A DNA stretch of 64,000 nucleotides. Origin: Phenylobacterium deserti (lineage in GTDB: Bacteria > Pseudomonadota > Alphaproteobacteria > Caulobacterales > Caulobacteraceae). The notes under the pieces were generated by a model. It was not told where the DNA came from, searched no databases, and saw only the letters and a program-made list of their open reading frames with translations. Shown piece after piece: positions 48,287 to 50,928 of this stretch (positions are counted from its first letter, which is position 1; every line of letters begins with the position of its first letter). The position numbers were made by a program, and so were the translations under genes. The stretch covers positions 62,001 through 126,000 of the forward strand of contig CAMCXF010000006.1 in the NCBI GenBank assembly GCA_945883235.1. Reading direction: 5' to 3'.

Positions 48287-49504
48287 CTATAGCACTGCCC
48301 TGAATTGCTCGGCGATCCAGTCGGCCTGATCCTGGGTCAGGATCAGCGGTGGGGCAATGCGGATGGTGTGATCGTGGGTCTCCTTGGCCAGCAGGCCGCG
48401 CGCCTGCAGGGCCTCGCAGACGGGGCGCGCACCGCCAAGATCGGCGTGAAGTTCGATGGCGATCATCAGGCCACGACCGCGAACCTCGCGCACCTTCGAT
48501 GACGCAATCCCGGCCAGATCAGCCCGCAAGCGGTCGCCCACCCGGGCCGCGTTTTCAATCATGCCTTCCTCGACCAGCACCTTCAGCGCCGCCCGTGCCA
48601 CGGCGCAGGCCAGAGGGTTGCCGCCAAAGGTCGAGCCGTGCTCGCCGGGATGCAGCACATCCATGACCTGGCTGTTCGAAAGCACGGCGGACACGGGATA
48701 GAAGCCACCCGACAGGGCCTTGCCGATCAAAGTCAAATCGGCCTCGATGCCCTCGTGCTCTTCGGCCAGCAGCTTGCCGGTGCGACCCAGGCCGGTCTGG
48801 ATCTCGTCGAGTATCAGGATGACGTTGTGGCGAGTGCACAGGTCCCGCGCCCGCTTCAGATAGCCGGCGGGCGGGATGATTACGCCCGCCTCGCCCTGGA
48901 TGGGCTCCACCAGGAAGGCCACCGTGTTCGGTGTGATGGCCGATTCCAGCGCGTCGGCGTCGCCGAACGGCACGGTCCGGAAGCCCGCCGGAAACGGACC
49001 AAAACCGCCACGAGACTGCGGATCGGTGGAGAAGCCCACGATGGCCACGGTGCGGCCGTGGAAGTTCTCGGAGCAGACGATGATCTCGGCCTGGCCATCC
49101 AGCACGCCCTTGACCTCATAGCCCCACTTGCGGGCCACCTTCAGCGCTGTCTCCACCGCCTCGGCGCCGGAGTTCATCGGCAGCACCTTGTGGCTGCTGG
49201 TCAACGCGCAGAGCTCTTCATAGAAGGGCGCCAGCTGGTCGTTGCGGAACGCCCGCGAGGTCAACGTCAGCTTGCCGGCCTGTTCGGTCATGGCGGCCAG
49301 GATCTTCGGGTGGCAGTGCCCCTGGTTCACCGCTGAATAGGCCGAGAGGCAGTCGAGGTAACGGTTGCCGTCCACATCCCAGACATGAACGCCCTCGCCT
49401 CGGGTCAGCACCACGTCGAGGGGTTTGTAGTTCCTTGCGCCGAGGCGGCCTTCGGTCTCGACATAGCGGGCGGTAAGCGAGCGGTTCAGGCTGATATCGT
49501 TCAT
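48287..49504 (-). CDS. rocD: Ornithine aminotransferase
   Basis: A PLP enzyme of 405 residues converting ornithine and 2-oxoglutarate to glutamate-5-semialdehyde and glutamate. Features of the class III aminotransferases are GEGVHVWDVDGNRYLDCLSAY as one N-terminal stretch, then MNSGAEAVETALKVARKWGY, ILILDEIQTGLGRTG and the PLP lysine in LIGKALSGGFYPVSA. GGGAG precedes the ATG. It lies 12 bases downstream of the DDAH-family hydrolase gene on the same strand; that enzyme could supply ornithine. Confidence 0.92.
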   Translation of the reverse strand: MNDISLNRSLTARYVETEGRLGARNYKPLDVVLTRGEGVHVWDVDGNRYLDCLSAYSAVNQGHCHPKILAAMTEQAGKLTLTSRAFRNDQLAPFYEELCALTSSHKVLPMNSGAEAVETALKVARKWGYEVKGVLDGQAEIIVCSENFHGRTVAIVGFSTDPQSRGGFGPFPAGFRTVPFGDADALESAITPNTVAFLVEPIQGEAGVIIPPAGYLKRARDLCTRHNVILILDEIQTGLGRTGKLLAEEHEGIEADLTLIGKALSGGFYPVSAVLSNSQVMDVLHPGEHGSTFGGNPLACAVARAALKVLVEEGMIENAARVGDRLRADLAGIASSKVREVRGRGLMIAIELHADLGGARPVCEALQARGLLAKETHDHTIRIAPPLILTQDQADWIAEQFRAVL

Positions 49505-49516
49505 GGAGGTGACTCC

Positions 49517-50383
49517 CTATTCAGCGGCTTGGGGGGCGGGGGCGCTGACGCGGTCGAGGCGCAGCGTCATGCAGTAGGAGGCACCGCCGGACAGGATGAA
49601 GGGATCCAGGTCCACTTCGGTCAGGCTGTAGCCGTTGGCTTCAAGCCTGGTCCTGAGGCTGTTGGGCGCACGGGCCATGATCACCTGGCGACCCAGGTTG
49701 ACGGCGTTGACGCAGAAGGCGGCGGCTTCCTCCGGGGTGGCTTCGATGCGTTGAGCCTCCGGAACCAGATCGCGGATCGTCGCCTGCGCCTCAGCCGTGA
49801 ACGCCGCCGGATAGTACAGCAGCTTGCCGCCGGCCAATGGGCAGAAGCAGGTGTCCAGGTGATAGAAGCGGTCGCTCACCAGCTCCAGCGCCACAATCGG
49901 CCGGTCAAACGTGCGGCGGATCACGCGGATCGCACCCTGGCTGGACCGCGGGCCATAGCCGCACCAGAAGTGCCCGCGATCCGCGTCCCAGATCGCATCG
50001 CCCGCGCCCTCATGGAACAGGCCGTCGGGCAGGTCGACGATCTCGCGCACCAGACCGCGGGTCTTCAGGCTCTGGAAGGCGGCGCGGAACACCGCTTCCT
50101 CTCCCTGACGCTCGGGATGGCGGAACCGGGCCAGCAGCACCGTATCGTCCAGCACCACGGCGGCGTTGGCCGGAAACACCAGGTCCGGCAGACCGTTGAC
50201 AGCGCCAAGCACCTCCACCCGCGCGCCGGCGTTTTCCAATGCCGACCGCAGGGTCTTCGACGCCCCGCGCGCCGCCGCCGCATCAGCGGGGGTCCAGCCC
50301 CTGGGGTCCATCCACGGATTGATCTTGTAACGAACGTCAAACGCCGAGGCGTCGGTCATCAGGAAGAAGGGCTGGCCGCTCAT
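49517..50383 (-). CDS. Amidinotransferase-fold hydrolase, probable arginine dihydrolase
   Basis: A 288-residue protein of the guanidino-group-modifying superfamily (COG1834, often named dimethylarginine dimethylaminohydrolase). The catalytic Cys is in SGGASYCMTLRLD near the C-terminus, the His is in FYHLDTCFC, and the Glu/Asp pair lies in FHEGAGDAIWD. The N-terminal motif reads LVFPANAAVV, with Asn where deiminases and dimethylaminohydrolases have Asp (FVEDTAVV); Asn here is typical of dihydrolases such as ArgZ and AstB. Followed by rocD, it may turn arginine directly into ornithine. Dimethylargininase remains the main alternative. Confidence 0.75.
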   Translation of the reverse strand: MSGQPFFLMTDASAFDVRYKINPWMDPRGWTPADAAAARGASKTLRSALENAGARVEVLGAVNGLPDLVFPANAAVVLDDTVLLARFRHPERQGEEAVFRAAFQSLKTRGLVREIVDLPDGLFHEGAGDAIWDADRGHFWCGYGPRSSQGAIRVIRRTFDRPIVALELVSDRFYHLDTCFCPLAGGKLLYYPAAFTAEAQATIRDLVPEAQRIEATPEEAAAFCVNAVNLGRQVIMARAPNSLRTRLEANGYSLTEVDLDPFILSGGASYCMTLRLDRVSAPAPQAAE

Positions 50384-50458
50384 GCGCGAACTCCGACGGG
50401 TTTTCAGACCCCCAGAGTGGCTTGGAAGCGCGTTAGCGAAAAGCGCATATCGTGCTAC

Positions 50459-50472
50459 AATTCGATTGAATT
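50459..50472. promoter_or_regulatory. AT-rich inverted repeat, candidate Lrp site
   Basis: AATTC-GATT-GAATT (50459-50472) is a perfect 5-4-5 inverted repeat in the 119-base gap between the divergent hydrolase and Lrp genes. It is much more AT-rich than its surroundings, as Lrp/AsnC sites usually are. Confidence 0.5.
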
Positions 50473-50502
50473 TATATCAGATCCATAGAAGATGATGACG
50501 TA

Positions 50503-50928
50503 ATGCTGGATGACCTCGACCGCCGACTGATCGCCCTGCTGCGTGCGGATTCCCGCACCCCGGCGGCCACCCTGGCAAAGTCCCTGAAGGTGTCGCGGGG
50601 CACCGTCCAGAACCGCGTTGATCGCCTTCTGAATCGGGGGTTTATCCAGGGTTTCACCGTAAAGACCCGGCCAGACGTCGAGGCCCATCGGGTTAGCGCC
50701 ATCATGTCGATCGCCATCGAGGGCGAACGCTCCGCCGCCGTGGTGGCCTCACTGAGAGGCTTTCCGGAGGTCGCCGCCGTCCACACCACCAACGGCCGCT
50801 GGGATCTGATCGCCGAGCTGGAGGTGGAAACCCTGGCGGCGTTCAGCGCCACTCTGGACAACGTGCGCCAGATCGCGGGAATTGCTGCGACCGAGACATC
50901 AATCCTGCTCGCGACCCAGAAGATGTGA
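50503..50928 (+). CDS. Lrp/AsnC-family regulator
   Basis: A 141-residue feast/famine regulator. An N-terminal HTH (DRRLIALLRADSRTPAATLA, SLKVSRGTVQNRVDRLL) precedes the ligand-binding RAM domain (about residues 65-135). It is divergent from the arginine dihydrolase-like/rocD pair, and members in such settings often sense arginine or ornithine and activate catabolism. Fifteen bases separate it from the oligopeptidase gene on the same strand, so peptide breakdown and amino-acid use may be co-expressed. Confidence 0.88.
   Translation: MLDDLDRRLIALLRADSRTPAATLAKSLKVSRGTVQNRVDRLLNRGFIQGFTVKTRPDVEAHRVSAIMSIAIEGERSAAVVASLRGFPEVAAVHTTNGRWDLIAELEVETLAAFSATLDNVRQIAGIAATETSILLATQKM

What the first reader, a model, noticed from the sequence alone, without database searches (positions are those of the whole stretch)
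48287..50928. Probable arginine dihydrolase-ornithine aminotransferase unit under Lrp control
A guanidino-modifying enzyme with the Asn-type motif FPANA (as in ArgZ and AstB dihydrolases) rather than the Asp-type of deiminases sits 12 bases upstream of rocD, divergent from an Lrp regulator with an AT-rich inverted repeat between. This would be a compact route arginine to ornithine to glutamate semialdehyde without arginase. Such proteins are usually labelled dimethylargininase.
Basis: partly seen in the sequence, partly recalled or inferred. Interest (0 to 1): 0.55.

Follow-up and report, generated by a model that had tools for sequence, protein, structure and literature searches.

The report
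Arginine dihydrolase paired with ornithine aminotransferase
A small bacterial operon appears to turn arginine into ornithine in one step without arginase and to pass the ornithine to the next enzyme, and the matching gene in mycobacteria is probably labelled with the wrong enzyme name.

Summary
In detail: an argZ-like gene (49517-50383, -), a 12-base gap, rocD (48287-49504, -), and a divergent Lrp-type gene (50503-50928, +). The AT-rich inverted repeat has 5-bp arms and is not conserved. The enzyme is a stand-alone ArgZ/AgrE-type domain: 40% identical to ArgZ, model within 1.2 A over 273 residues (Z 43.9; best DDAH 31.0). Its active-site pair (Asn73, Asp177) is that of ArgZ, not of DDAH (Asp, Lys) or CtlX (Asn, Asn). 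Of 88 related loci, 35 are fused to an ornithine cyclodeaminase; of 53 stand-alone ones, 25 lie beside ornithine aminotransferase, 14 beside an unrelated ornithine cyclodeaminase, 14 beside neither. These partners share ornithine as substrate. The genome shows no arginase, arginine deiminase or AstB match. One mycobacterial record has the same gene order; there the gene is named dimethylargininase, although loss of its M. tuberculosis counterpart Rv2323c impairs arginine use. In relatives' spacers a palindrome, TGNC-N5-GNCA, recurs at 21-bp spacing as a candidate operator; the window's copy is degenerate. Chemistry and regulation are inferred, not assayed. New variant of a known kind.

The parts
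49517..50383 (-). argZ-like stand-alone arginine dihydrolase, 288 aa (N22, N73, R92, E125, H175, D177, C271 = active-site set by alignment with ArgZ)
50165..50167 (-). codon of Asn73 (ArgZ Asn71 position, FPANA)
49853..49855 (-). codon of Asp177 (HLD; Lys in P. aeruginosa DDAH, Asn in CtlX)
49571..49573 (-). codon of Cys271 (ArgZ Cys264, nucleophile position)
49505..49516 (-). 12-base gap GGAGTCACCTCC between argZ stop and rocD ATG; probable ribosome-binding sequence of rocD
   Evidence: the RBS reading is by eye
48287..49504 (-). rocD, ornithine--oxo-acid aminotransferase, 405 aa
   Evidence: TIGR01885 543.9 bits, cut-off 378.4
50384..50502 (.). 119-base divergent spacer; holds a degenerate operator-like TGATATAAATTCA (two mismatches) and the genus-conserved block TAGCACGATATGCGCTTTTCGCTAAC
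50503..50928 (+). Lrp/AsnC-family regulator, 141 aa, divergent
   Evidence: PF01037 52.3 bits, PF13404 47.1 bits

Best explanation
The 288-aa protein is a stand-alone arginine dihydrolase of the ArgZ/AgrE type. It hydrolyses arginine to ornithine, CO2 and two ammonia through a covalent intermediate on Cys271, with Asn73 in place of the deiminases' Asp. Ornithine goes to RocD from the same operon, giving glutamate semialdehyde, which a PutA-type dehydrogenase oxidises to glutamate. The divergent Lrp-type protein most likely controls the shared spacer. Shown here: homology, predicted fold, residue code, gene order, absence of matches to the usual arginine enzymes, partner choice in relatives. 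Inferred: the reaction, its direction in the cell, co-transcription, induction by arginine, and Lrp binding.
For: Sequence: PDB matches are led by ArgZ (6jv0, E 3.2e-57) and AgrE (6lrf, E 2.4e-53); DDAHs follow at E 2.1e-10 at best. Structure: model pLDDT 95.1; ArgZ 6jv0 Z 43.9, rmsd 1.2 over 273 residues; DDAH 1h70 Z 31.0; AstB 1yni 28.5; ADI 4bof 27.3. Residue code (73, 125, 175, 177, 271): N,E,H,D,C in 111 of 127 aligned rows, two more lacking only the last column; 4 rows read D..K, 8 D..D, 2 N..N. The D..K rows have DDAH models as best NCBIfam match and the N..N rows CtlX, all under the cut-offs; P. aeruginosa DDAH itself reads FVED and HLK. Neighbours: of 88 loci, 35 are fused to an NPN-dependent ornithine cyclodeaminase; of 53 stand-alone, 25 lie beside rocD and 14 beside a mu-crystallin-type ocd (6 partners checked by curated models). 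Tree: the 12 argZ-ocd rows form one clade (SH-aLRT 99) inside a 32-row clade (99) with 19 argZ-rocD rows and one without partner, so the partner changed while ornithine use stayed. Within the genus, full-length argZ and this rocD (E under 1e-100) occur in the same 18 of 36 genomes. Own genome: 0 arginase, 0 ADI, 0 AstB, no SpeA over cut-off; P5C-dehydrogenase sequence of the PutA type in two pieces, neither over the cut-off alone. Mycobacterial counterpart: same order lrp-ddaH-rocD-permease; the Rv2323c knock-out has a growth defect on arginine and 6.4% instead of 49.8% 13C excess in proline, and no arginase homologue is known in M. tuberculosis (PMC4569260).
Against: No assay. NCBIfam's arginine dihydrolase model scores 234.1 bits against a cut-off of 450, so the curated family does not admit it. 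14 of 53 stand-alone relatives show no ornithine enzyme in the held flank; 8 of these had under 1.6 kb on at least one side, but 6 (L082, L090, L099, L100, L101, L105) had at least 2.8 kb on both. Of six annotated plasmid loci with a related gene, only the M. ulcerans one has rocD and an Lrp gene beside it; the others lie by NRPS genes, by an annotated arginine deiminase, or by unrelated genes. 4 of the 18 same-genus genomes with the unit also carry a full-length ureohydrolase match. In M. tuberculosis rocD is broken and the Rv2323c knock-out still takes up some 15N from arginine, so RocD is not the only outlet there.
Confidence: 0.86

Rival explanations
1. It is a true dimethylarginine dimethylaminohydrolase (dimethylargininase), as relatives are labelled, releasing citrulline and methylamines.
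For: NCBIfam NF045659 dimethylargininase scores 201.8 bits; actinobacterial relatives are over that model's cut-off and carry the label.
Against: NF045659 is below its cut-off of 300 here, and the two other DDAH models give 51.1 and 30.1 bits. P. aeruginosa DDAH has Asp at site 73 and Lys at site 177 (the Lys of DDAHs also in PMC11659421 passages); here Asn and Asp. Frequent partners use ornithine, not citrulline. The model is far closer to ArgZ than to DDAH.
Confidence: 0.04
2. It is an arginine deiminase that stops at citrulline.
For: His-X-Asp and Cys are shared with deiminases; same fold (Z 27.3 to ADI 4bof).
Against: The Asp at position 73 is replaced by Asn. PF02274 scores 19.8 bits, under its cut-off of 22.8. 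The next gene is rocD, whose substrate is ornithine, not citrulline (general knowledge).
Confidence: 0.04
3. It is a citrullinase like CtlX, making ornithine from citrulline.
For: Also Asn at 73; CtlX is often beside ocd (PMC9007349 passages); its product would equally feed RocD.
Against: CtlX has Asn at both sites (FPNN, HTN); here the second is Asp. The CtlX model NF046062 is not among the matches of this protein at E 0.001, although it is a weak match of two relatives (28.4 and 19.7 bits of 334). The tree puts the two CtlX-like rows on a branch of length 6.8.
Confidence: 0.05
4. The Lrp-type gene is an unrelated neighbour and the operon is not under its control.
For: The window's spacer has no good copy of the palindrome; the mycobacterial and window Lrp share only 25% identity; L081 has the argZ-rocD order with 4 kb upstream and no lrp.
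Against: A divergent lrp sits beside argZ in 22 of the 23 loci that have the argZ-rocD or argZ-ocd order and enough upstream sequence (L051 and L069 are cut off too near); palindromes are enriched in the spacers.
Confidence: 0.2

Closest known systems
ArgZ (Sll1336) / AgrE (Alr4995), bifunctional arginine dihydrolase-ornithine cyclodeaminase of cyanobacteria
   Same: Dihydrolase domain: 39-40% identity, fold at 1.2 A, aligned active-site set; its product serves an ornithine-consuming step (AgrE's two activities in PMC8262935, whole text).
   Different: No fused cyclodeaminase domain, 288 aa only; the partner is a separate RocD; divergent Lrp-type gene.
Rv2323c-rocD-rocE cluster beside Rv2324 (M. 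tuberculosis; Hampel 2015, PMC4569260) and the M. ulcerans copy
   Same: Same order in M. ulcerans: divergent Lrp/AsnC gene, enzyme with Asn and HLD, rocD; Rv2323c needed for normal arginine use; no arginase homologue in M. tuberculosis.
   Different: Enzyme 34% identical, regulator 25% identical; the mycobacterial cluster adds a permease and a stress protein; rocD is broken in M. tuberculosis.
CtlX putative citrullinase (PMC9007349)
   Same: Same superfamily, Asn at the first site, works with ornithine enzymes.
   Different: Second site Asn, not Asp; distant in the tree.
DDAH (1h70, 3rhy; human DDAH1)
   Same: Fold and Cys/His machinery.
   Different: Asp and Lys at the two discriminating sites in 3rhy; 18-20% identity.
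Arginase pathway rocF-rocD-rocA
   Same: Same intermediate ornithine and same RocD.
   Different: No arginase match in the genome and no urea; ammonia and CO2 released directly (inferred).

Membership tests
Arginine dihydrolase (ArgZ/AgrE type) | Homology and fold to the ArgZ N-terminal domain over its length | tested here: met
   273 residues aligned of 288, Z 43.9, rmsd 1.2, 40% identity
Arginine dihydrolase (ArgZ/AgrE type) | Catalytic set N22, N71, E118, H168, D170, C264 (ArgZ numbering) | tested here: met
   N71 and C264 are named in PDB titles; the other numbers come from the alignment and their roles are recalled
Arginine dihydrolase (ArgZ/AgrE type) | Score over the NCBIfam NF052232 cut-off (450 bits) | tested here: not met
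   234.1 bits; a Herbaspirillum relative at 390.4 fails too. So it is not a member of that curated model; the claim made is that it works like ArgZ
Arginine dihydrolase (ArgZ/AgrE type) | Arginine to ornithine, CO2 and two ammonia | not testable with these tools
   needs an enzyme assay
Bifunctional ArgZ/AgrE | C-terminal ornithine cyclodeaminase domain | tested here: not met
   the protein ends at 288 aa and matches only positions 5-276 of the 696-position model
DDAH (dimethylargininase) | Asp at site 73 and Lys at site 177 | tested here: not met
   Asn and Asp
DDAH (dimethylargininase) | Score over an NCBIfam DDAH cut-off | tested here: not met
   201.8 of 300, 51.1 of 340, 30.1 of 450
CtlX citrullinase | Asn at both guanidino-site positions | tested here: not met
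   Asn and Asp
Arginine deiminase | Asp at both guanidino-site positions; PF02274 over cut-off | tested here: not met
   Asn and Asp; 19.8 of 22.8 bits
Ornithine aminotransferase (RocD) | TIGR01885 over cut-off | tested here: met
   543.9 of 378.4 bits; the other model NF003145 is not reached, 548 of 656
Lrp/AsnC regulator | AsnC HTH plus ligand-binding domain | tested here: met
   47.1 of 27 and 52.3 of 25 bits
Lrp/AsnC regulator | Controls the argZ-rocD promoter | not testable with these tools
   palindromes in relatives' spacers are suggestive only
Mycobacterial Rv2323c-type unit | Order lrp< enzyme> rocD> with the Asn/Asp pair | tested here: met
   one M. ulcerans record
Mycobacterial Rv2323c-type unit | Orthologous regulator | tested here: inconclusive
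   25% identity

The most novel reading that the evidence does not exclude
Arginine dihydrolase plus ornithine aminotransferase is a widespread arginase-free arginine route, in Alpha- and Betaproteobacteria and in mycobacteria. The NCBI equivalog named dimethylargininase for the mycobacterial type (NF045659) is misnamed: it is an arginine dihydrolase family. That would explain why Rv2323c is required for normal arginine use.
Probability: 0.58. Interest if true: 0.62.

Novelty: new variant of a known kind. Interest (0 to 1): 0.5.

Why it matters
If right, arginine dihydrolase is not only a cyanobacterial enzyme fused to one partner but a module that has been joined to three different ornithine-consuming enzymes. 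It gives these bacteria arginine catabolism without arginase or urea. It also offers a concrete answer to a question left open in 2015 (how M. tuberculosis makes ornithine from arginine without a known arginase, PMC4569260), and it questions a name that a 2024 review still builds upon (PMC11008464, passages). A two-residue code, Asn/Asp against Asp/Lys and Asn/Asn, would help annotators to separate these enzyme classes.

Tried and rejected
Considered and rejected: DDAH, deiminase and citrullinase readings (see rivals). Sigma-70 consensus promoters in 48200-50700: 0 found. Arginase as the replacement in genomes without the unit: not seen; 0 of 18 argZ-less same-genus genomes have a full-length ureohydrolase match, one (G015) a partial one of 26 bits; among the 18 with the unit 4 have a full-length match of 193-232 bits and six more (G008, G010, G013, G017, G020, G034) only partial ones of 21-39 bits. 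Arginine decarboxylase: only sub-cut-off matches of 48.6 and 31.3 bits. tRNA, Rfam families and notable tandem repeats in the window: 0, 0 and one short array at 3757-3785.

Limits of the controls. The palindrome TGNC-N5-GNCA was derived from the same spacers on which it was counted, and the loci are related, so the shuffle figures are descriptive. With two mismatches allowed the 21-bp spacing is 42 against 10.8 expected, but the commonest spacing is then 8 bp, as common in shuffles. The group names of remote rows (DDAH-like, deiminase-like, CtlX-like) were first given by the residues themselves. Curated models as a check bear out 4 of 4 DDAH-like rows and 2 of 2 CtlX-like rows as best match, below cut-off; of the deiminase-like rows tested, L050 has arginine deiminase as best match, while L039 and L042 have NF045659 as a weak best match (83 and 65 bits), so that third group is not securely named. 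Tree: 89 rows, quick method, SH-aLRT support only, two long branches (L050, L144). Left out of it were L001, L009, L012, L017, L020, L031, L032, L054, L078, all but 5 of the same-genus loci other than the window, and 24 of 35 fused rows. Six remote loci (L019, L021, L033, L036, L037, L049) gave no tblastn match at 1e-5 and entered neither tree nor residue table. Left out besides: L001, L009, L020, L032, L078.

Papers: the ArgZ and AgrE structure papers are not held, so their mechanism is taken from PDB titles and recall. The Asn type of AstB is recalled only.
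Full report
WHAT IS THERE. The enzyme is a 288-aa ORF at 49517-50383 on the minus strand, rocD follows after exactly 12 bases at 48287-49504, and an Lrp/AsnC gene of 141 aa starts on the other strand at 50503, beyond a spacer of 119 bases. RocD is well over one ornithine aminotransferase cut-off (TIGR01885, 543.9 of 378.4 bits). The window is part of a 3.82-Mb genome in 109 contigs, 99.88% complete. The locus L018, from a same-genus genome, groups closely with two named Phenylobacterium MAGs, L053 and L065, so I take the genus to be Phenylobacterium or very near, by inference.

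WHAT THE ENZYME IS. Against solved structures the protein finds ArgZ (E 3.2e-57) and AgrE (E 2.4e-53) first, and DDAHs only at E 2.1e-10 or worse. A model made from an alignment of 35 sequences has mean pLDDT 95.1. It superposes on ArgZ 6jv0 with Z 43.9, 1.2 A over 273 residues; the best DDAH has Z 31.0, AstB 28.5, ADI 27.3. The discriminating residues are at the two guanidino-contacting positions, 73 and 177 here. In 127 aligned rows, the window's included, the set (73, 125, 175, 177, 271) reads N,E,H,D,C in 111; two more (L017, L054) lack only the last column. Four rows read D at 73 and K at 177, eight D and D, two N and N. Curated models name the D/K rows DDAH-like and the N/N rows CtlX-like, below cut-off; the D/D rows are less securely named. 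P. aeruginosa DDAH itself shows FVED and HLK; the Lys of DDAHs is described in PMC11659421 and the residues of CtlX in PMC9007349 (passages of both). Thus Asn plus Asp marks the ArgZ type. The five fetched actinobacterial proteins that are annotated as dimethylargininase (L139-L142, L145) carry the ArgZ pair.

WHAT ITS NEIGHBOURS SAY. The other 53 are stand-alone: 25 lie beside rocD (13 with rocD after argZ, 12 before), 14 beside a mu-crystallin-type ornithine cyclodeaminase (12 after, 2 before), and 14 show neither; 8 of these 14 have under 1.6 kb on at least one side, 6 do not. Six example partners, one of them from M. ulcerans, were confirmed as ornithine aminotransferase (4) or ornithine cyclodeaminase (2) by curated models. 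Partners of three different families that share ornithine as substrate are hard to explain unless the product is ornithine. On the tree the 12 argZ-ocd rows (Cupriavidus, Pigmentiphaga and others) form one clade with support 99, inside a clade of 32 rows (support 99) that holds 19 argZ-rocD rows and one row without a partner.

THE GENOME. The genome has no match to arginase/ureohydrolase, arginine deiminase or AstB, while the same searches ring in 9, 3 and 2 of 14 known genomes; SpeA gives only sub-cut-off matches. P5C-dehydrogenase sequence of the PutA type is present in two pieces on contigs C53 and C29, covering profile positions 1-304 and 256-496, neither over the cut-off alone; I read them as one gene cut by a contig break. 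In 36 same-genus genomes full-length argZ and this rocD (E under 1e-100) occur in the same 18, some in pieces and one with an internal stop in argZ; at these thresholds neither is found in the 24 genomes of other families of the order. As the genes are linked this shows joint inheritance, not independent events. Four of the 18 also have a full-length ureohydrolase match. In 397 genomes of the phylum, 41 have some match and 10, own included, one over 190 bits.

THE MYCOBACTERIAL CASE. A Mycobacterium ulcerans record shows lrp< ddaH> rocD> permease> in the same orientation, with the enzyme labelled dimethylargininase. It scores 475 bits to the NCBI model of that name (NF045659), 195 to arginine dihydrolase, but only 72 and 28 to the two other dimethylargininase models. 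Hampel et al. 2015 (PMC4569260; abstract, passages and sections 9 and 10 seen) report that Rv2323c is induced by arginine, that its knock-out has a growth defect on arginine and 6.4% instead of 49.8% 13C excess in proline, that arginine is converted to ornithine, and that no arginase homologue is known; they left its reaction open, found rocD broken, and saw residual nitrogen uptake in the knock-out. A 2024 review still treats it as DDAH (PMC11008464, passages). Against a simple generalisation, of six annotated plasmid loci of related proteins only this one has rocD and an Lrp gene beside it. Searches for Rv2323c with dihydrolase gave 0 papers, for ddaH with rocD that review alone, and for arginine dihydrolase with ornithine aminotransferase four papers whose titles and abstract beginnings concern other matters (listing only). 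So in the held open-access library I found no statement of the dihydrolase reading; most subscription papers could not be searched.

REGULATION. 43 spacers between argZ and a divergent lrp could be cut out: 21 of the genus, counting the window, L053 and L065, and 22 others. The palindrome TGNC-N5-GNCA occurs in 15 of 21 and 14 of 22, against 0.66 and 1.54 loci expected from 300 shuffles. Sites with at most one mismatch recur at a spacing of exactly 21 bp 15 times, against 0.19 expected from 100 shuffles; two helical turns is what cooperative Lrp-type dimers would suit (general knowledge). The pattern was found in the same data, so this is a candidate operator, not a test. The window's own spacer has no copy within one mismatch, only TGATATAAATTCA with two, so its control may be relaxed or use other sites. 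The block TAGCACGATATGCGCTTTTCGCTAAC is shared with the genus and may be the promoter region. The M. ulcerans regulator is only 25% identical and its spacer has no such site within one mismatch. One locus, L081, has the argZ-rocD order without a recognisable lrp upstream.

VERDICT. The unit is best read as a one-enzyme arginine-to-ornithine step coupled to RocD. It is a new variant of a known kind: the enzyme class is known from ArgZ and AgrE, and the mycobacterial gene cluster has been published with the reaction left open. What appears new is the pairing with RocD as a recurrent module, the partner exchange seen on the tree, the residue code that speaks against the dimethylargininase name, and the candidate operator. 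The protein does not reach the cut-off of the curated arginine dihydrolase model (234.1 of 450 bits), so I claim that it works like ArgZ and not that it belongs to that curated model.

Noticed in passing
L145:3627-5795 and L140:4959-8079: ArgZ-type genes labelled dimethylargininase sit next to an annotated arginine deiminase (Streptomyces plasmid) or beside NRPS-type genes (Pseudonocardia plasmid), so some members may serve secondary metabolism.
   Followed up: no
L144:3905-4828: A haloarchaeal arginine deiminase-related protein has the same Asn/Asp pair at 32% identity, with no ornithine gene annotated within 4 kb.
   Followed up: no
window 50944-52734 (+): An M3-family oligoendopeptidase gene lies directly downstream of lrp; it is found beside lrp in 11 of the 19 same-genus loci examined with 1.5-kb flanks and might supply arginine from peptides.
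   Followed up: partly
window 46164-48278 (+): A PQQ-dependent alcohol dehydrogenase with a C-terminal cytochrome c domain converges on rocD; 14 of the 19 same-genus loci show the end of a related gene there.
   Followed up: no
window 43972-46069: A MocR-like YczR regulator gene (NF052290, 607.1 of 487.4 bits) diverges from an ORF for a small membrane-type protein; the two ATG codons overlap.
   Followed up: no
L017 (same-genus genome G031): The argZ orthologue there is reported with one internal TGA, so it may be a pseudogene or a sequencing error.
   Followed up: no
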